From positions 62,001-126,000 of the forward strand of contig CAOKDX010000004.1 in the NCBI GenBank assembly GCA_948467395.1: a DNA stretch of 64,000 nucleotides. The letters run 5' to 3'. Below, one piece after another: positions 1 through 26,343 of the stretch. The stretch comes from an uncultured Clostridia bacterium. GTDB lineage: Bacteria > Bacillota > Clostridia > Lachnospirales > Lachnospiraceae. Position numbers and translations under genes: made by a program. How positions within the stretch are numbered: position 1 is the stretch's first letter; the number at the start of each line of letters is the position of its first letter. Under the pieces are notes generated by a model. That model ran no database searches, was not told where the DNA came from, and worked only from the letters and a program-made list of their open reading frames with translations.

Positions 1-2059
1 GCACCCAGAAGTTCATGGTCTCCGGCATGGAATATACGCCGTCGCCGATGGACCCGGTCAGGAAGAAGCCCGGTTCAAAGGGAGCTGCCGCCTCCTTGAA
101 ATCGCTAAACTTCGCCATATCTACCAGCGCTCCACGGATGCCGATCTCATACGGGATCGTGTAGTTGATACCAGTGGCAACGTCTGGTGCATTTCCCGCT
201 GAGTTCGCCAGCACCAGCTTATTCTGGTCGGGCATGACGCTGATGTCAACCTCAATGCCTGTCTTCGGCGTGAAGTCCTCATCGATCATTTTCTGCATAA
301 TCTGGATATACTGGCTGGAGCGGTTTACCCATACCTGAAGATGTTCCCGGTTGGTACTGCTGGCATTGTAATCCTGATTGGTAAAGGATGAAACAAAACG
401 TTTTACATTCATCCATGCGGAACTAAAGAAGCCCGGTTTGGACGGAAGCTCTGCGCCGTCCTGATAAATGTAAACACGGTCGATCGCCAGTCCGTTTGCG
501 ATCAGATTATCAATGGTTGTAGCCAGATGATGGTTGACCGAGCTCGTACTGGTAGAGAGCTCTGCAATACGGTACGGAATTTCATCCGGGCTGTCTGCCA
601 GGCTTCTCAGCTGCTGTGCCGCGATCAGCATGGATGACATAACCGCTACATTCTTATCGCTGTCACTCCACTTCACCGCGCTGGCTTCCAGCTGTGTCAG
701 TGCATCTGCATAACCGTTCAGCGTCTTTTCCAGATTCGGTATGTACCGGGAGAGCTTCAGGTCGCGGTACTTATCTGCATTCGTTCCGGCAACCTTGGTG
801 ATCTCCAGCGCCAGGTCATTGACGTCGGACATGATCCGGTCAAGCCCTTCCATAATATAACGGATATTATCCATACTGATCGTATAGGATACCGTATGGG
901 TTCCCGGCGTCAGATGAACGGTAAGATTATTGCCGTCTGCATCTGTCAGCGACTTAGTCTGGTAGTTTGTGGAATAGGACAGTCCATAGGAACGGAATGC
1001 ATCGCTGGGGATCTTTCCATCCACCTCCACATCCACAAATACCGGAAAATCGGTTTTCTCTGACTGACGATAATTCAATGCAAGGTTATAATTACCTTCC
1101 TTTTCTACTTCAAAGCTGTAGGAGACCTTCTGGCCTGCCTCACTAAAGGAATCGGAATCCAGTGTGTTCAGGACAGTATCATCTACCTCATAGGGATCCA
1201 GCGCCGTATCATATTCTACAACGCCATGGATGGAAGAGCTGTTGGTAGTGGAATACTTCTCACCCTGTACGGTGATCAGGGCATCCCCCTCCGCCTTCTC
1301 AGATCCGGAGTATGCCGGAACGGTCTCCGGCGCCCTGAGGGCCACCCTGCCAAACAGGAAATTCCCTTCCTTAATGGTAAACTTCAGAGTGTGTTTCCCC
1401 TTCTTTAATTCCAGTTTCAGCGGATCTGAATGACGATAGCTGGAATCCATGAGACTCTGTGTCTCCCATTTGATATCTTTGTCCGGGATCGCCACCACTT
1501 CGTTATTGTAGCGGTCATAGGACGGTTCTGCGCTAAGCTTCCATGTCGTCTCCAGTTCCATGTTGCGACATTCATAGAACGGATAGGCATCGTCAACCTG
1601 CATGCCGAGGGAAATAGGCAGGATCGATTCATCATAAGAGAGATAATCCATATCCAGGCAGTAAAGTCCATCCTCCGGAACATCTATCTCCGCCTGTGCC
1701 GTGTCACCCGTCGACAATTTCAAAACCTGTGCGGAGCCTTCATAGCCCTGCGTTTCATTTGTCAGTTTGTCCTTACTGTCACCAGCTGCTGCATCCTTCA
1801 TCTGAAAGTTCACAGCATCCCCCTTGTAATCAGGCAGTGAGTACTTCTTACTGATCACAGTATAGTTCGTGCTGATACGCTCACTTGAATAGTCTTCTCC
1901 GGCCTTGCCTGAAGCCTGTTCCGTAATGTCCTCAGGGTTGGTCTGATCCGTCACCGGGTCAGCCTTGGCACGCTGTCCCACACATGCGGCGATCAGCGAC
2001 GCAGCCAGCACTAATGCCGCTGTTTTCCTGACTTTTGTTGTGAAAATTTTGCGTCGCAT
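1..2059 (-). CDS. Extracellular solute-binding lipoprotein with large N-terminal domain (partial, 3' end off window)
   Basis: The frame is open from an ATG at 2057-2059 to the window edge (686 codons). AAGGAGGA lies just upstream. The N-terminus has a basic, hydrophobic signal with a lipobox-like IAAC (Cys26), so a surface lipoprotein is expected. The first ~400 residues are rich in beta strand and Gly/Ser/Thr and look like carbohydrate-binding modules. The later part (FTPKTGIEVDISVMPDQNKL, ANSAGNAPDVATG) matches family 1 solute-binding proteins of ABC sugar importers. Family 1 binding proteins are usually 400-550 residues, so this is a long, multi-domain version. Permease genes would be expected beyond the left edge. 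Sugar specificity cannot be told. Confidence 0.8.
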   Translation of the reverse strand, partial: MRRKIFTTKVRKTAALVLAASLIAACVGQRAKADPVTDQTNPEDITEQASGKAGEDYSSERISTNYTVISKKYSLPDYKGDAVNFQMKDAAAGDSKDKLTNETQGYEGSAQVLKLSTGDTAQAEIDVPEDGLYCLDMDYLSYDESILPISLGMQVDDAYPFYECRNMELETTWKLSAEPSYDRYNNEVVAIPDKDIKWETQSLMDSSYRHSDPLKLELKKGKHTLKFTIKEGNFLFGRVALRAPETVPAYSGSEKAEGDALITVQGEKYSTTNSSSIHGVVEYDTALDPYEVDDTVLNTLDSDSFSEAGQKVSYSFEVEKEGNYNLALNYRQSEKTDFPVFVDVEVDGKIPSDAFRSYGLSYSTNYQTKSLTDADGNNLTVHLTPGTHTVSYTISMDNIRYIMEGLDRIMSDVNDLALEITKVAGTNADKYRDLKLSRYIPNLEKTLNGYADALTQLEASAVKWSDSDKNVAVMSSMLIAAQQLRSLADSPDEIPYRIAELSTSTSSVNHHLATTIDNLIANGLAIDRVYIYQDGAELPSKPGFFSSAWMNVKRFVSSFTNQDYNASSTNREHLQVWVNRSSQYIQIMQKMIDEDFTPKTGIEVDISVMPDQNKLVLANSAGNAPDVATGINYTIPYEIGIRGALVDMAKFSDFKEAAAPFEPGFFLTGSIGDGVYSMPETMNFWV

Positions 2060-2122
2060 AACATCCTCCTTATCCTTTTTATTCGTCAATCATTCTAAAA
2101 ATAAAACACTACCGTATAGTTA

Positions 2123-2577: not shown

Positions 2578-4221
2578 TCAATACTTAACACCCCACAAAC
2601 TCTCATTTTCTCCTACGGCGGAGAACGTCATTGTCTTTGTTCCAGCCTCGTCGTTCATCTCACACAGGACGCCGCTGTATTCCTTGCCGTCTATGATCAT
2701 GTGGATATAATAGGAGCCATCCTTCGCCTTCCACATACCCTGTATCTTCTCGCCGAAGAGATTTCCTCCCTCCGTCAGCACGATTTTTTCGGGCTCTGCA
2801 ATCACTGAACCTATCTTTGTTCCCTGATTGATCATATAATACTCGCCTACGACCCTGCTCTTTTCATATCCCTTCTCAGCCACAGTCTCCCCGTCCGTGG
2901 CATACGGCAGCATGCAGGGCCATCCCTCTTCATTCAGAAGATACTGGTGTACCCGTGGCTGATGCTGTTCTCCCCTGTTCTCGAACCTGGTATGGTTTAC
3001 GATATAGCGCTTGCCGTCCTTGGCAATAAAAGCAGAATTATGACCGGTTGCCATATATGCCTGGTCAAGGGAGGGAAGCCGATAATTTCCAGACAGCTTC
3101 AGTCCGAAATTGTTGTGGCTTCCAGCCCCCGGTTCCGGGTGTTCGCCCTTCATGTCCTCGTAATTTCCATCCGGTGTTTTGGAGCGGAATACCCGGATCT
3201 GATAGCCCTTCTTCTGCTCGAGGCCGCCGTAGGATACATACAGATAATAATAATCCGACTCCTTATCGTATAAAATATAAGGCGCCTCAATGGAAACATG
3301 CCCGCCTCCCAGCAGCTTCTTACCGAAATACGGATCCACATCGTTCTCCGGGTCTGCCTTTGGATGGATCACCTTTCCTGTGGACTCGTCAATCTCCAGC
3401 AGAAAGATGCCGCCGGACCAGGAACCGTATGTCATCCACATTCTTCCATCCTTATCCCAGAATATCGTAGGATCAAGGGCATTGGGATATCTCCTGTAAT
3501 CATAGCTGATACCTTCGTCCTGGGTATATGTCTTCATGGCGGTATCCTTATCCACTACCTCCTCGACATTGGTCTTATCCAGCGTGCTCTGGTTAAAACC
3601 GGAATAAATCAGATTCCCCTCGTACTTAAAGGGGCCCTCCGGTGAAGGCGATGTGGCATAGCAGATGGTAGAGGTATTGAAGTTAGAGGATGTGCAGAAA
3701 TACATATAATAAAGCTTCCTCTTCTCACTGTACTTCACATCCGGTGCCCAGATGCTTGTACCGGATGCCGGAATGACGCTTTCCGTACTGCCGGTAAAGG
3801 CCAGCGCCCCGTCCTTGCTGGAATAAATATCGCCAAAAATCGGATTATCCTCCGGGGCTCCCCGGTAAAGGTATTCCCATTTTCTCATATCCTTCGATTT
3901 GGCCGATGCCATATGGGAACCATAGATATAATAAGTACCGTCTGCTTCCAGGATCGAGGGATCATGGACTGCCTCGCCGCCCTCAATAAAGCTGGTCTTA
4001 ATATCATCCATGTTTACCTTGAAATCCGTTTTCAGCGCCGCCTTCTCACTCTCGGCGGACTTTTCCCTCTCCGCTATATCTTCCGGGGTCAATGCTCCGG
4101 ACTTTTCTTCCTTTACCGCTCCCCCGGATGCAGCAGGCTGGTTATTCTCTTTGCCGCATCCGGTAAACAGGACTGCCATAACGGTCAGCAGACTGACTGC
4201 TGTCTTTATTCTTTTCTTCAT
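2578..4221 (-). CDS. GH43 family arabinanase-like lipoprotein
   Basis: 547 residues. The start at 4219-4221 is set by AGGAGG and by a promoter ending just upstream; a longer frame to 4350 would begin upstream of that promoter. The signal peptide ends in a lipobox (FTGCGKE), so the enzyme is predicted to sit on the outer face of the membrane. The five-bladed propeller motifs of GH43 are visible: VHDPSI (catalytic base Asp), ALDPTIFWDKDG (pKa-modulating Asp) and SIEAPYILYD (catalytic acid Glu). A C-terminal ~100-residue beta domain follows the propeller, as in Abn2-type endo-1,5-alpha-L-arabinanases. Likely role: cutting arabinan side chains of pectin or hemicellulose. Exact substrate is inferred. 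Confidence 0.85.
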   Translation of the reverse strand: MKKRIKTAVSLLTVMAVLFTGCGKENNQPAASGGAVKEEKSGALTPEDIAEREKSAESEKAALKTDFKVNMDDIKTSFIEGGEAVHDPSILEADGTYYIYGSHMASAKSKDMRKWEYLYRGAPEDNPIFGDIYSSKDGALAFTGSTESVIPASGTSIWAPDVKYSEKRKLYYMYFCTSSNFNTSTICYATSPSPEGPFKYEGNLIYSGFNQSTLDKTNVEEVVDKDTAMKTYTQDEGISYDYRRYPNALDPTIFWDKDGRMWMTYGSWSGGIFLLEIDESTGKVIHPKADPENDVDPYFGKKLLGGGHVSIEAPYILYDKESDYYYLYVSYGGLEQKKGYQIRVFRSKTPDGNYEDMKGEHPEPGAGSHNNFGLKLSGNYRLPSLDQAYMATGHNSAFIAKDGKRYIVNHTRFENRGEQHQPRVHQYLLNEEGWPCMLPYATDGETVAEKGYEKSRVVGEYYMINQGTKIGSVIAEPEKIVLTEGGNLFGEKIQGMWKAKDGSYYIHMIIDGKEYSGVLCEMNDEAGTKTMTFSAVGENESLWGVKY

Positions 4222-4254
4222 GATCAACCTCCTGTAATTTTCAATTCTTATGCT

Positions 4255-4283
4255 ATTATACCAAAATGCCCGGAAAGAATCAA
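4255..4283 (-). promoter_or_regulatory. Sigma-A promoter of the GH43 gene
   Basis: TTGATT (4278-4283), 17-bp spacer, TATAAT (4255-4260) on the minus strand, 33 bp upstream of the GH43 start codon. Confidence 0.8.
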
Positions 4284-4469
4284 CGCTTTTCTTGTGCACT
4301 TTTACCACTTCATCCCGGGTGCGGAGCACCGCCTGCCGCTGCTTTATCATAATTTATCACAAAAATATGCAAAAAAGCATATCAAAATTATACCATATAT
4401 GTTATAATCCTTTTAGATTATACTGTTAAGAATAGATTTTATATATAAACTGTAAAGGGGAGAGAGCAT

Positions 4470-6449
4470 ATGGGAATGGCAGAATCCAATATAAATCCGG
4501 AAAACGGAATACATACCTCAGGGATTGAGCACGATTATCTCACCGGCCTTGCCAACCGCCGGGGTCTCTACGATTACTATGATTCCCTGACGGAGGACCG
4601 CATCGTCCATGCCATGTTCATTGATATCGACAACTTTAAGCGGGTCAATGATATATACGGGCACAGTATGGGGGATAAGCTGCTCATCGCCATCAGCCAC
4701 CTGATCCAGAATCATGCTCAGGGATTCTCTTCCCGTATCGGCGGCGATGAATATGTCGTTCTGCTGGACGGCGAGCTGGACACGGCGGAGGTGGAACATA
4801 CGGCCGCCCAGCTGATCAGCAATCTGGAGCACATCGATTTCCGCACGGATATCCTCTCTCTCGTCTCGCTGAGCATCGGCATTGTATTCTCCCAGACGGC
4901 ATCCCAGCCATTAGACGATATTCTGGCAAAATGCGACGCCGCCATGTATCAGTCAAAATATGACGGAAAGAATAAATATACGATATACAGCGCCGAGGAT
5001 AAGACCCTGGAGATCAACCGCAACATTGAGGCAGAGATGGAGGACGCCTTGAAAAACGGCGAATTCCAGGTATATCTGCAGCCCAAGGTAAACATGGTAT
5101 CCAGCAGGCTTTATGGCGCGGAGGGGCTGTCCCGGTGGGTTCATCCGGTAGACGGAATCCGGCCTCCCGCCTCCTATATTCCGCTTTTTGAGAAAAACGG
5201 CTTTATTACCCAGCTGGATATGTATATATACGAAGAGGTTTGCCGCCTGAAAGCCTCCTGGGCAGGCGAGATATACGAGCACATACCGGTCTCCGTCAAC
5301 ATGTCCCGCCTTCATCTGTACAACAAGCATTTTGTGGATGACCTGATGGATATCGCCACAAAATACAACATACCGCCCCAGGAGCTTGAACTTGAGATTA
5401 CAGAAAATACGTTTATCAAAGACAATGCAGAGCTGATCAAGGTCATTGACATCCTTCAGGCCCACGGCTTTATGGTTTCCATTGACGATTTCGGCTCCGG
5501 CTACTCGGCGCTGAACCTATTCAAGGACCTGTCCGTAAATACAGTTAAGATCGATAAGGAATTCCTGCATTCTTCCTCTGACACATTCCGGGGAAGAAAG
5601 GTGCTGCGAAATGTCATCGCCCTGTGCCGCGATCTGAAAATCGATGTAGTAACGGAGGGAATCGAGACCCAGGAACAGATCGACTTCATCACCAGGAGCG
5701 GCTGCCCCATCGGTCAGGGCTTTTATTATTCCAAACCAGTTCCCGCGGATGAATTTGCCGTCTTTGCAAAAGAGCATCTGGCGAATATACAGAACGATTT
5801 TACCTTCCGTTTCAACGGCAGCTTAAAATCAGAGGACGGCGGCATGGAGGGAAGAGTGTGCGGCGAGGGCATGCGGTATGAGGACGGCATCTTCTCGGAT
5901 TCAAAGGCCATCTTCTTCCCCGGCGGAAAGACAGAGACCAATCTCATCGAGCTGCCGCCTGAGACCATAGTGAACGACAGCTATACAATTTCCATGTGGC
6001 TCCGTCCGAAGGAGCTCCATCAATGGTCCTCCTCCCTGTATGTAAAATTTGAGACGGGATTTTTCAGCATCTGTCCCCTTGCCTGGGAGGGCCATTCGGA
6101 TTTCCGCATCCGGGATTCCCGTGAGATCAACGGCTGGTATGATGTGAATTCCTGCCAGCTCCAGAAGGAATACTGGTGGCATGTGATCATCTCCTACAAT
6201 GCCAATACGGAGATTGCCACCTTCTTTGTAAACGGTGATGTGCTGGCTATGATCAAGGAAGTACCAACAAACCGCTATGTCAAGAGGATCGTACTGGGCG
6301 GCGATGTATTCCAGCCCTCCTACATCGGTAATATGTGCGAGCTGGTAATATATAACGAAGCAAAGGATTATGATTTCATGCAGGAGCTCCATGAATCCTA
6401 TATCAATGATAAGCGATTCGTGGGAGGACCGCTGAAGAAGCTGCTGTAA
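4470..6449 (+). CDS. GGDEF-EAL cyclic-di-GMP protein with C-terminal LamG/concanavalin-like domain
   Basis: 659 residues, no signal peptide or membrane helix. Residues 20-170 form a diguanylate cyclase domain (DYLTGLANR at 23; GGDEY at 91-95; no RxxD inhibitory site before it). Residues 185-435 form an EAL phosphodiesterase domain that keeps the catalytic set in order: E of AEGL (218), N277 in SVNMS, E309 in EITEN, DDFGSG (339), K360 in KIDKEF, E396 in EGIET, and Q416 in GQGFYY. The EAL triplet itself reads EGL. Residues ~443-650 match LamG-type jelly rolls: SYTISMWLRPKE, YWWHVIISYN, ATFFVNGDV, a final helix. No sensory domain precedes GGDEF, so the LamG unit is the only candidate input. A cytoplasmic lectin-like fold fused to these enzymes is unusual. 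Start: ATG after AAAGGGGAGAG. Confidence 0.92.
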   Translation: MGMAESNINPENGIHTSGIEHDYLTGLANRRGLYDYYDSLTEDRIVHAMFIDIDNFKRVNDIYGHSMGDKLLIAISHLIQNHAQGFSSRIGGDEYVVLLDGELDTAEVEHTAAQLISNLEHIDFRTDILSLVSLSIGIVFSQTASQPLDDILAKCDAAMYQSKYDGKNKYTIYSAEDKTLEINRNIEAEMEDALKNGEFQVYLQPKVNMVSSRLYGAEGLSRWVHPVDGIRPPASYIPLFEKNGFITQLDMYIYEEVCRLKASWAGEIYEHIPVSVNMSRLHLYNKHFVDDLMDIATKYNIPPQELELEITENTFIKDNAELIKVIDILQAHGFMVSIDDFGSGYSALNLFKDLSVNTVKIDKEFLHSSSDTFRGRKVLRNVIALCRDLKIDVVTEGIETQEQIDFITRSGCPIGQGFYYSKPVPADEFAVFAKEHLANIQNDFTFRFNGSLKSEDGGMEGRVCGEGMRYEDGIFSDSKAIFFPGGKTETNLIELPPETIVNDSYTISMWLRPKELHQWSSSLYVKFETGFFSICPLAWEGHSDFRIRDSREINGWYDVNSCQLQKEYWWHVIISYNANTEIATFFVNGDVLAMIKEVPTNRYVKRIVLGGDVFQPSYIGNMCELVIYNEAKDYDFMQELHESYINDKRFVGGPLKKLL

Positions 6450-6454
6450 GGAAG

Positions 6455-7444
6455 CTATTTATTCAAATATCCCGGTCTTTTCAGACTTCCCTTTTTGAAA
6501 CTATATTCCGGCGTCTGGAGAGGATAGCGGATCTCGTCTTCATAGTACCACGGATCCCCGTCCTGTTCGTGCGCCGGATTTTTTAAGAGCTGGAACTGCT
6601 GTGCCGGCATAAATCCCTGCGCCAGAAGAAATGCCTTCTTCCCGGCGGCGTCCTCGCATACGTCCACCACCATAACAACATGGCCCGGGCTGCCGCCCTG
6701 AATAAAGATATCCCCTGCCCGGACACCAGTCAGCCGGATCTTCTTTGACTCCCGATCCAGAGACAGGGTACTGGAATAAGCGAATACCATCCGAAGATAT
6801 TTCTTAAAATTCTCATAGGAATCGTCATAGCTGCCGCCCGTCACCCAGGAGGTGCTCTGCGCCACCCGGATCCGGTAGCCCTCACGCCATTTCGTATAAT
6901 CCGCCTGGAATCCATCCGCAAACTGGAAGGATATCCTGTCGTACTGCCCGGTCTCCCAGAAATATTCCGCATACATCCGTATAACAGAATCCGCACACTG
7001 CTGGAGATCCTCTTTTTCGATGGGGAGCTTAAACACTGCTGCGTGGGCATCCTGATTCTGTTTATTCTTCCCGTTGTAGAGCTTCACCTTTGCCCCCGCC
7101 TTCTTCAGCTTATATCCCCGGAGAAAACTGCCAAAGCTGTTCTTTCCCACCTTCACTCTCTCATATCCCGCAGGCGGATTTACCCTGGCCTCCAGTGTCA
7201 TTCCCTGGTCATAAATAATTTCCCCGCCGGCGGCCCCGATCACGCCGCCAGACACGGTCCCTCCCACTATCGTACCGCCGGACACCGCTCCCGGCGAGGC
7301 ATTGGCGGCACCGCCGGACACCGCCACCTCCGTATCACTTCCCCAGGAGAAGGGGCGGCACAATACCAAAACAAAAGCAAGTACAACCGCTCCCAGCACG
7401 GTTGAAATGATGATCGCATCCTTTTCCGTCATTCTGTGTCTCAC
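6455..7444 (-). CDS. DUF4846 domain protein, membrane anchored
   Basis: 329 residues. GTG start at 7442-7444 with GAGGG six bases upstream; an inner ATG four codons on is the alternative. One N-terminal membrane helix (residues ~9-30), then a low-complexity Gly/Ser/Val/Ala linker (~40-75), then a globular domain with NSFGSFLRGYKLKKAG, CADSVIRMYAEYFWETGQYD, FADGFQADYTKWREGYR and GHVVMVVDVCED. This pattern is that of the DUF4846 family, whose biochemical role is not known. Predicted to face the cell exterior. It converges with the GGDEF-EAL gene, with 5 bp between the stops, so the two may interfere. Confidence 0.75.
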   Translation of the reverse strand: MRHRMTEKDAIIISTVLGAVVLAFVLVLCRPFSWGSDTEVAVSGGAANASPGAVSGGTIVGGTVSGGVIGAAGGEIIYDQGMTLEARVNPPAGYERVKVGKNSFGSFLRGYKLKKAGAKVKLYNGKNKQNQDAHAAVFKLPIEKEDLQQCADSVIRMYAEYFWETGQYDRISFQFADGFQADYTKWREGYRIRVAQSTSWVTGGSYDDSYENFKKYLRMVFAYSSTLSLDRESKKIRLTGVRAGDIFIQGGSPGHVVMVVDVCEDAAGKKAFLLAQGFMPAQQFQLLKNPAHEQDGDPWYYEDEIRYPLQTPEYSFKKGSLKRPGYLNK

Positions 7445-25434: not shown

Positions 25435-26343
25435 TTATTTTACAAGACCTTTGTTCTTGTACAGCTGTTTAACCTGCTTAGCTGTCAGGGCTTTCTTCCA
25501 GATTGTTACATCATCATAGAGAGCTCTTACAGGTACGTCCCATCCGTTGATACCCAGGAAGAACTTAGTCTTGCTGGAGATTGTCTTCTTCGGAACGGCA
25601 CCGTTACCATACAGCTTACCATTGATGTATGTAGCTCCGTTATAACCCTTGCAGTAGCCTTCGCCGCCTTTTTCGCCATACTCTGTGATCTTTTTCTTGC
25701 TGTGGTCTACAACAAGTGTAACATGTACCCAGCTCTTGGAGTCAAAAGCAGTACCATAGGTCCACTTAGCTTCTCCTGTCGCTTCGTCTACACCATTCTT
25801 GCAGTACCAGGGCCACTCATCGCTCTTGCCCTGTACGCAGCGTGACCAGATAACCGGTGTACCGCCGATCTCAGCGATATCACTTCTCTTTGTAATGGAC
25901 ATCCATTTTGCACTTACATCTTTCAGATCGGTAGCAGCGAAGAATACCGGGCTGAAATCGCCGATACCATTCGGAATCTGTACCCAGAAAGATACGGTCC
26001 AGGAACCAGAACCAACATTCACGCCTTTCAGCTGAACGCCGTATGTTCTGTCAAGGAACAATGCCTTGCCGTTTTTGCCCTTCTTGTACTGTACTTTTTT
26101 CTTGCTCTTAGTCGGCATAACGCCGCCCTTAGCTTTCTTTGTAGCAGCCTCCGTGGGCTTGAATGTCTCGGCACTGTCGCCTTTGCGGGCTACTGCCACT
26201 ACATTTTTGTTTGCTTTGTTCATGTTAAATGTGTAAGCTGCCTTCGGCACCTTTACTTTCTTTGCGGATGCAGCAGGTGCAGACACAACAGAACCTACTA
26301 CTAATGCTGTAGCAAGAGCGCCACATAAAAATCTTTTCATCAT
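25435..26343 (-). CDS. Secreted LamG/concanavalin-like protein
   Basis: 302 residues. Signal peptide (MMKRFLCGALATALVVGSVV, SAPAASA cleavage), a Lys-rich mature N-terminus, then one LamG domain (~75-300): GSWTVSFWVQIPNGIG, KSWVHVTLVVDHSKKKITEYG, TYINGKLYGNG, FFLGINGWDVPVRALYDDV, and a final helix KALTAKQVKQLYKNK. There is no catalytic domain, so a carbohydrate- or surface-binding role is likely. AAAGGAGGAATAA precedes the start. Its gene lies upstream of the GH2 gene on the same strand but has its own terminator. Confidence 0.85.
   Translation of the reverse strand: MMKRFLCGALATALVVGSVVSAPAASAKKVKVPKAAYTFNMNKANKNVVAVARKGDSAETFKPTEAATKKAKGGVMPTKSKKKVQYKKGKNGKALFLDRTYGVQLKGVNVGSGSWTVSFWVQIPNGIGDFSPVFFAATDLKDVSAKWMSITKRSDIAEIGGTPVIWSRCVQGKSDEWPWYCKNGVDEATGEAKWTYGTAFDSKSWVHVTLVVDHSKKKITEYGEKGGEGYCKGYNGATYINGKLYGNGAVPKKTISSKTKFFLGINGWDVPVRALYDDVTIWKKALTAKQVKQLYKNKGLVK

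What the first reader, a model, noticed from the sequence alone, without database searches (positions are those of the whole stretch)
4470..6449. GGDEF-EAL enzyme fused to a LamG/lectin-like domain
The sequence shows full GGDEF and EAL domains followed by a ~200-residue LamG-type jelly roll, with no signal peptide or membrane helix and no sensory domain ahead. LamG domains are usually extracellular glycan or protein binders. Here the lectin-like unit appears to be the only input to a cytoplasmic cyclic-di-GMP enzyme and could read an intracellular sugar, glycogen-like polymer or nucleotide-sugar. A GH43 gene lies next door and a secreted LamG protein 19 kb away.
Basis: partly seen in the sequence, partly recalled or inferred. 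Interest (0 to 1): 0.78.

Follow-up and report, generated by a model that had tools for sequence, protein, structure and literature searches.

The report
Arabinan-lectin domain on c-di-GMP enzyme
A bacterium carries a cytoplasmic enzyme for the signal molecule cyclic-di-GMP whose only other part resembles the sugar-grip of a plant-arabinan-digesting enzyme, and the gene sits beside such an enzyme, so it may let the cell tune its lifestyle to the plant sugar it is eating.

Summary
In detail: 4470-6449 (+) encodes 659 aa with GGDEF (E 1e-28), EAL (7e-64) and C-terminal Laminin_G_3 (1e-12), no signal peptide or clear membrane helix. It belongs to a family whose LamG domains form one clade (49 rows, 100/95), found in 16 of 397 genomes sampled from the host family. 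The nearest solved relative of the LamG domain is Domain4 of arabinanase AbnA (E 9e-17), a published arabinan-binding module (PMC9110388). The neighbouring GH43 gene is AbnA-like with a lipoprotein-like start; an arabinan-type locus lies just upstream of the window. A listed GH43 is within 2.5 kb of 7 of 19 LamG-bearing EAL genes but 1 of 125 others. Two members, in two genera, fuse GGDEF-EAL-LamG to GH43. GH43_C occurs in 16 of 16 genomes with the family, 52 of 381 without. Best reading: a cytoplasmic carbohydrate-binding module coupling arabino-oligosaccharide supply to c-di-GMP turnover. Ligand and output direction are untested, and no fold model could be made. The papers searched do not describe it.

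The parts
4470..6449 (+). GGDEF-EAL-LamG protein, 659 aa
4527..4976 (+). GGDEF domain (residues 20-169; GGDEY signature; Asn60, Asp61, Asp93, Glu94 present)
   Evidence: Pfam PF00990 E 1.4e-28; motif table
5034..5738 (+). EAL domain (residues 189-423; EGL signature; Glu218, Asn277, Glu312, Asp339, Asp340, Lys360, Glu396, Gln416 present)
   Evidence: Pfam PF00563 E 6.8e-64; motif table
5805..6404 (+). LamG/ConA-like domain homologous to AbnA Domain4, about residues 446-645 (Pfam core 490-631)
   Evidence: PF13385 E 1.4e-12; family profile against 5hon E 8.8e-17 over nearly the whole domain
2578..4350 (-). divergent GH43 + GH43_C AbnA-like arabinanase; likely true start near 4221, with a lipobox-like LFTGCG
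   Evidence: start inferred from the sequence and its homologues
2..2089 (-). part of a large protein cut by the window edge; its homologue L057:1307-4330 carries a sugar solute-binding domain
6455..7444 (-). DUF4846 gene, convergent neighbour, kept in four relatives; no demonstrated part in the system

Best explanation
It is a cytoplasmic c-di-GMP turnover enzyme whose C-terminal domain is a carbohydrate-binding module of the AbnA Domain4 kind. Proposed working: surface arabinanase (the AbnA-like gene next door) and other enzymes of the locus cut plant arabinan; ABC transporters import arabino-oligosaccharides; while these persist in the cytoplasm the LamG domain binds them and, through the short EAL-LamG linker, changes EAL and/or GGDEF activity, so that c-di-GMP tracks arabinan supply. 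In two relatives a GH43 is fused behind the lectin domain, so one chain would bind, signal and destroy its own ligand. Shown: architecture, homology, genomic linkage, fusions, co-occurrence. Inferred: ligand, its presence in the cytoplasm, allosteric coupling. Unknown: whether c-di-GMP rises or falls.
For: A profile of 18 family LamG domains finds AbnA Domain4 first (E 8.8e-17; first hit other than AbnA 8.4e-5). Domain4 binds arabinopentaose in an aromatic-rich concave cleft and, alone, sugar-beet arabinan with Kd 7.7 uM (PMC9110388, passages). AbnA Trp758, Tyr759, Asp760 align with Trp556 (48/49 Trp), Tyr557 (35/49 Tyr), Asp558 (49/49). Neighbour GH43 best matches AbnA domains 1-2 (E 1.1e-90). 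A listed GH43 within 2.5 kb: 7/19 LamG EAL genes against 1/125 other EAL genes of the same 15 genomes, Fisher 1.7e-6. The linkage differs in layout: divergent (window and others), convergent (L045, L052), co-directional (L050), fused (L053, L133). Other immediate neighbours include GH53, GH127 and a protein with an arabinofuranosidase C-terminal domain. GH43_C: 16/16 genomes with the family against 52/381 without, P 1.1e-13; GH10 xylanase control 7/16 against 63/381, P 0.012. The 20 kb of contig before the window hold four GH43 genes (two with AbfB, one with GH43_C), an arabinofuranosidase-type gene, a solute-binding protein and a permease (9 ORFs scanned).
Against: No structure model and no binding data. 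Family invariants Arg546 and Trp519 differ from AbnA (Trp, His), and Asp612/Gln615/Ser617 align with Asn/Asp/Pro, so the ligand may differ. AbnA Domain4 groups with secreted LamG domains, not as sister of the family. 12 of 19 LamG EAL genes have no listed GH43 within 2.5 kb, and many neighbours belong to families with no glycan role. The binding-protein homologue near the GH43 (L057) best matches Lin1841 (E 3.1e-17), which says nothing for arabinose chains. Genomes with the family are also modestly enriched in GH10, so part of the signal is a general plant-fibre lifestyle; the GH43_C count includes the linked genes themselves. Fisher tests ignore relatedness; direct GH43 linkage (11 of 49 rows) needs at least 6 changes on the tree.
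Confidence: 0.5

Rival explanations
1. Same sensor idea but another glycan: the domain reads galactan, xylan or other pectin/hemicellulose oligosaccharides, perhaps differing between members.
For: Immediate neighbours also include GH3 (4 of 97 scanned), GH53 (2; the L083 one best matches an arabinogalactan galactanase), GH43 with GH43_C2 (beta-xylosidase type, L078) and GH1 (1). Family-specific residues differ from AbnA. The nearby solute-binding homologue matches Lin1841, not an arabinose-chain binder as far as I recall.
Against: GH43_C tracks the family far more closely than GH10 does; the nearest solved relative and both fusions are arabinanase-like.
Confidence: 0.25
2. The LamG domain is a protein-protein or localisation module (for example docking to a cytoplasmic arabinanase or a transporter), not a glycan sensor.
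For: Fusion to GH43 in L053 and L133; polar invariants such as Arg546, Asp558, Asp612 and Ser617 could form an interface.
Against: Several aromatic positions of AbnA Domain4 are kept or conservatively changed; many members have no listed GH43 nearby.
Confidence: 0.17
3. The domain is a structurally tolerated appendage without regulatory role.
For: Some members have degenerate GGDEF or EAL; one copy is broken by stops (L044) and one by a frame break (L093).
Against: LamG residues stay invariant even where GGDEF or EAL has decayed: Arg546, Asp558, Asp612 in 49 of 49; the family is one well-supported clade.
Confidence: 0.06

Closest known systems
GGDEF-EAL hybrid c-di-GMP enzymes (NCBIfam neighbours DibA, DosP)
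   Same: GGDEF-EAL tandem; the best NCBIfam matches cover only this part
   Different: No match near an equivalog cut-off (DibA 278.6 bits against 980, DosP 275.8 against 857); the extra domain is a C-terminal lectin domain
AbnA Domain4, arabinan-binding module (PDB 5hon, 5ho0; PMC9110388)
   Same: Homologous over nearly the whole domain, E 8.8e-17; shared aromatic and Asp positions
   Different: AbnA is extracellular and Domain4 serves hydrolysis; here the domain is cytoplasmic and attached to EAL; several family-specific residues
Secreted GH43-LamG proteins (e.g. L025)
   Same: GH43, GH43_C and Laminin_G_3 in one chain
   Different: L025 has S-layer domains; no GGDEF or EAL homologue in the 27 such loci tested, about 1.5 kb each side
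c-di-GMP binding to glycogen-debranching GlgX in Streptomyces (PMC9530166, start of abstract in a listing only)
   Same: Links c-di-GMP to a glycan enzyme inside the cell
   Different: There c-di-GMP binds the glycosidase; here a glycan-binding module sits on the c-di-GMP enzyme

Membership tests
GGDEF-EAL hybrid c-di-GMP enzyme | GGDEF and EAL domains above curated cut-offs | tested here: met
   100.1 and 215.9 bits against 23.8 and 31.3
GGDEF-EAL hybrid c-di-GMP enzyme | Catalytic residues present (GG[DE]E; EAL-domain E, N, E, D, D, K, E, Q) | tested here: met
   GGDEY; E218 N277 E312 D339 D340 K360 E396 Q416 (residue roles recalled)
GGDEF-EAL hybrid c-di-GMP enzyme | Synthesis or hydrolysis of c-di-GMP | not testable with these tools
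   needs enzymology
Laminin_G_3 / ConA-like jelly roll | Curated profile match | tested here: met
   48.5 bits against 27.6
Laminin_G_3 / ConA-like jelly roll | Jelly-roll fold in a model | not tested
   structure prediction switched off
AbnA Domain4-type arabinan-binding module | Full-domain homology, nearest solved relative | tested here: met
   5hon residues 6-205, E 8.8e-17
AbnA Domain4-type arabinan-binding module | Aromatic cleft residues | tested here: inconclusive
   Trp556/Tyr557/Asp558 and Trp539 match, Phe531 and Phe614 replace Trp; Arg546, Trp519, Asp612 differ; which residues touch sugar was not read from coordinates
AbnA Domain4-type arabinan-binding module | Same clade as AbnA Domain4 | tested here: inconclusive
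   the family is its own clade; AbnA Domain4 sits with secreted LamG rows; deep branches weak and end branches long
AbnA Domain4-type arabinan-binding module | Binding to arabinan | not testable with these tools
   needs a binding assay
GH43 AbnA-like arabinanase (neighbour gene) | GH43 plus GH43_C, nearest solved relatives arabinanases | tested here: met

The most novel reading that the evidence does not exclude
A plant-polysaccharide-binding module known from outside the cell has been moved inside as the sensor of a second-messenger enzyme, and in some lineages a ligand-degrading arabinanase is fused behind it, making a self-timing device: c-di-GMP output lasts only as long as imported arabino-oligosaccharide does.
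Probability: 0.35. Interest if true: 0.78.

Novelty: new variant of a known kind. Interest (0 to 1): 0.62.

Why it matters
The inputs of many GGDEF/EAL proteins are unknown (general knowledge). Here homology, neighbours, fusions and co-occurrence name a specific, testable ligand class, arabino-oligosaccharides, and would link plant-fibre breakdown in Lachnospiraceae directly to the c-di-GMP switch between attached and motile life. It would also be a carbohydrate-binding module used for signalling in the cytoplasm rather than for hydrolysis outside.

Tried and rejected
Chance or artefact: rejected; the same order recurs in many loci. Fusion L053 as an assembly error: unlikely after a second fusion, L133, was found in another genus with 60% identity in the GH43 part (shown by BLAST, not by Pfam; its contig ends before the ORF does). 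Of 6 other genomes of G041's genus, 4 matched only the GH43 part and 2 nothing, so the fusion is rare.

Family outside Lachnospiraceae: in 295 order-level and 291 class-level genomes (sets that include the own genome and some same-family ones) 26 and 39 had a LamG match, none but the window's own above 69.1 bits. The 22 loci returned for them, and 5 weak ones, hold no GGDEF/EAL homologue within about 1.5 kb; the remaining weak matches were not looked at. One member, L092, is titled Clostridia bacterium SZUA-610.

A c-di-GMP riboswitch as a nearby output: none at gathering threshold in 84 kb of window plus L119, only a tRNA. PMC5457731 (GGDEF protein with reported alpha-glucosidase activity; passages read) is a HAMP-GGDEF protein, not a precedent. 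A promoter-like site on the minus strand near 4255-4283 would fit the GH43 start near 4221, but 3 sites were found against 1.3 expected.

Limits of counts: the adjacency test used a GH43 list cut by the tool at its best matches; I left out G337's rows because G337 was not in the EAL search, which gave 143; G279:C131 could not enter because its EAL part is missing. Neighbour Pfam scans used 97 of 99 neighbours (the two of L047, near-identical to L046, were left out), and the tool showed 25 of 75 and 25 of 56 matching families, so rarer ones went unseen.

Full report
What is there. The ORF at 4470-6449 (+) is as described: 659 aa, GGDEF 20-169, EAL 189-423, Laminin_G_3 490-631, each above Pfam's cut-off. 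No 19-residue stretch exceeds a mean hydropathy of 1.5 and the N-terminus is hydrophilic. The frame exactly opposite is broken by stops, and the listed minus-strand ORFs inside it are at most 170 aa. The GGDEF signature reads GGDEY and the EAL signature EGL; the other catalytic positions tabulated are present (their roles are recalled from general knowledge of these families).

It is a family. A search of 397 genomes sampled from the host family found matches to the C-terminal domain in 23; 16 of these genomes, with 21 places, score 110 bits or more, and the other 7 genomes 39.5 bits or less. Of the 20 high-scoring places outside the window's genome, 18 give one uninterrupted ORF containing EAL and LamG; the exceptions are a copy with in-frame stops (L044) and one cut by a contig end (L048). 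Pfam found EAL and Laminin_G_3 in 9 of the 9 given to it and GGDEF in 8 of 9. In the window's own genus 12 of 39 genomes matched. A scan of the named genome collection gave 39 loci, 37 with a strong match and 2 weak ones (L094, L095); most titles name Lachnospiraceae, a few name other or unspecified Clostridia, Eubacteriaceae or an unnamed bacterium. After removing repeats of the same contig 51 loci remained, some from near-identical species. On a tree of 69 LamG domains the 49 family rows form one clade (100/95); outside rows have long branches, so the deeper order is unsure.

What varies and what does not. N-terminal parts differ: a membrane-spanning stretch in L049 and long extra regions in L047, L055 and L056; the short ORF L086 begins with a hydrophobic stretch that I did not follow up. 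Among 50 ORFs over 400 aa the EAL set is strongly altered in L045, L050, L052, L053, L054, L080 (2109-4082), L083 and L084, and changed at one acidic or lysine position in L055, L067, L068 and L071; the aligned GGDEF signature is altered in L049, L051, L056 (whose other GGDEF domain keeps it), L080 (2109-4082) and the shortened L086. The LamG domain keeps Arg546, Asp558, Asp612, Trp510, Trp519, Phe531 and Trp569 in 49 of 49 and Trp556 in 48 of 49 (L093, cut by a frame break, is not among the 49). The lectin domain is thus the constant part while the catalytic output differs between members.

What the lectin domain is. A profile of 18 family domains against the sequences of solved structures finds Domain4 of the Geobacillus arabinanase AbnA first (5hon, E 8.8e-17); the first hit other than AbnA is a pentraxin-like protein at 8.4e-5. 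PMC9110388 (outline and passages seen) reports arabinopentaose bound in the concave, aromatic-rich cleft of Domain4, arabinan binding by isolated Domain4 (sugar-beet arabinan, Kd 7.7 uM), and proposes that it belongs to a new, uncharacterised family of carbohydrate-binding modules. AbnA's Trp758-Tyr759-Asp760 align with Trp556-Tyr557-Asp558 here; other positions differ, for example Arg546 against Trp and Trp519 against His. I had no coordinates, so which residues touch sugar was not checked.

Where it sits. The gene is divergent from a GH43 + GH43_C gene whose best solved match is AbnA domains 1-2 (E 1.1e-90) and whose N-terminus looks like a lipoprotein signal. In the 20 kb of contig just before the window, 9 ORFs given to Pfam include two GH43+AbfB proteins, a GH43+GH43_C+Big_2 protein, a protein with an alpha-L-arabinofuranosidase C-terminal domain and no obvious signal, another GH43, a solute-binding protein and a permease. 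Together these look like an arabinan-type utilisation locus (inference). The solute-binding homologue next to the GH43 (L057) best matches Lin1841 (E 3.1e-17), which does not support arabinose-chain uptake in particular. Elsewhere, of 97 immediate neighbours scanned, 12 are GH43, 4 GH3, 2 GH53 and one each GH127, arabinofuranosidase-type and GH1, among the families shown. Many others belong to families with no evident glycan role.

Controls. In 15 genomes a listed GH43 lies within 2.5 kb of 7 of 19 LamG-bearing EAL genes and of 1 of 125 other EAL genes (Fisher P 1.7e-6); at 6 kb the figures are 8/19 and 7/125, P 7.6e-5. GH43_C occurs in all 16 genomes with the family and in 52 of the other 381 (P 1.1e-13); the linked GH43_C genes themselves are part of that count. 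The GH10 xylanase control occurs in 7 of 16 and 63 of 381 at E 0.001 (P 0.012), so the family marks plant-fibre users in general but arabinanase-type genes far more strongly; the window's own genome has no GH10 match. These tests treat genomes as independent. On the tree, direct GH43 linkage (11 of 49 rows) needs at least 6 changes, and its layout is divergent, convergent, co-directional or fused, which argues against mere inheritance of one arrangement.

Fusions. L053 (G041) reads GGDEF-EAL-LamG-GH43-GH43_C in one 1093-aa ORF. L133 (G953, the window's genus) matches the same parts in the same order in 1076 aa up to its contig end, with 60% identity to L053 in the GH43 part. Both keep a GGDEF signature; L053's EAL set is degenerate and L133's looks so by eye. 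The related GH43 neighbours in L048 and L052 show no signal peptide by eye, unlike the window-type neighbours, whose starts look like lipoprotein signals in 11 of 11, so a cytoplasmic arabinanase beside the cytoplasmic lectin is plausible. The nearest solved relative of the L053 GH43 part is YxiA (E 1.3e-48), followed by other GH43 arabinanases.

How it most likely works. Arabinan is cut outside, oligosaccharides are imported (inferred from the locus and from known arabinan pathways), the LamG domain binds them in the cytoplasm, and EAL and/or GGDEF output changes. The direction is unknown: the window protein keeps both catalytic sets, others keep one. In the fusions the ligand would be consumed by the same chain. 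No c-di-GMP riboswitch was found nearby to show an output.

Literature. Eight searches (GGDEF+EAL+LamG; GGDEF with lectin domain or carbohydrate-binding; diguanylate cyclase+GGDEF+Laminin_G_3; with Lachnospiraceae; with arabinan; with carbohydrate-binding module and sensor domain; with concanavalin A-like; with glycoside hydrolase domain and fused) listed no paper that by title, abstract start or term counts describes this architecture. Of the papers found I opened only PMC5457731 and, PMC9110388, both in passages. One search listed 12 of 962 papers, ranked with more matching terms first, none holding the LamG term. The library holds open-licence papers only, and domain databases may list the architecture without comment, so 'undescribed' is limited to these searches.

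Noticed in passing
window 6455-7444 (-): DUF4846 gene convergent with the GGDEF-EAL-LamG gene; homologues sit next to the family member in L057, L058, L063 and L136. Function unknown.
   Followed up: partly
L080 2109-4082 and 7218-8741: Two family members in one locus, beside an arabinofuranosidase-type gene: one with altered EAL and SGDEF, one shorter without an aligned GGDEF signature but with the EAL set present; possibly a divided pair.
   Followed up: no
L044 (G096:C22) and L093: Broken copies: in-frame stops in L044's LamG part and a frame break in L093.
   Followed up: no
window 25435-26343 (-): 302-aa protein with a signal-peptide-like start and LamG-like look, not reported by the family profile.
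   Followed up: partly
L050 5851-10394: Co-directional trio GH43, GGDEF-EAL-LamG, GH43 with gaps of 12 and 28 bp, a likely operon.
   Followed up: no
L081 8739-11186 and L085 5608-8025: The gene directly downstream of the family member is, in L085, another GGDEF/EAL protein; the L081 gene clusters with it.
   Followed up: no
L119 12750-15158 (-): DUF5696 protein (E 9.7e-173) inside the arabinan-type locus, function unknown.
   Followed up: no
L086 1924-3534: Family member with a shortened GGDEF part and a hydrophobic stretch near residue 5; may be cut, broken or membrane-bound.
   Followed up: no
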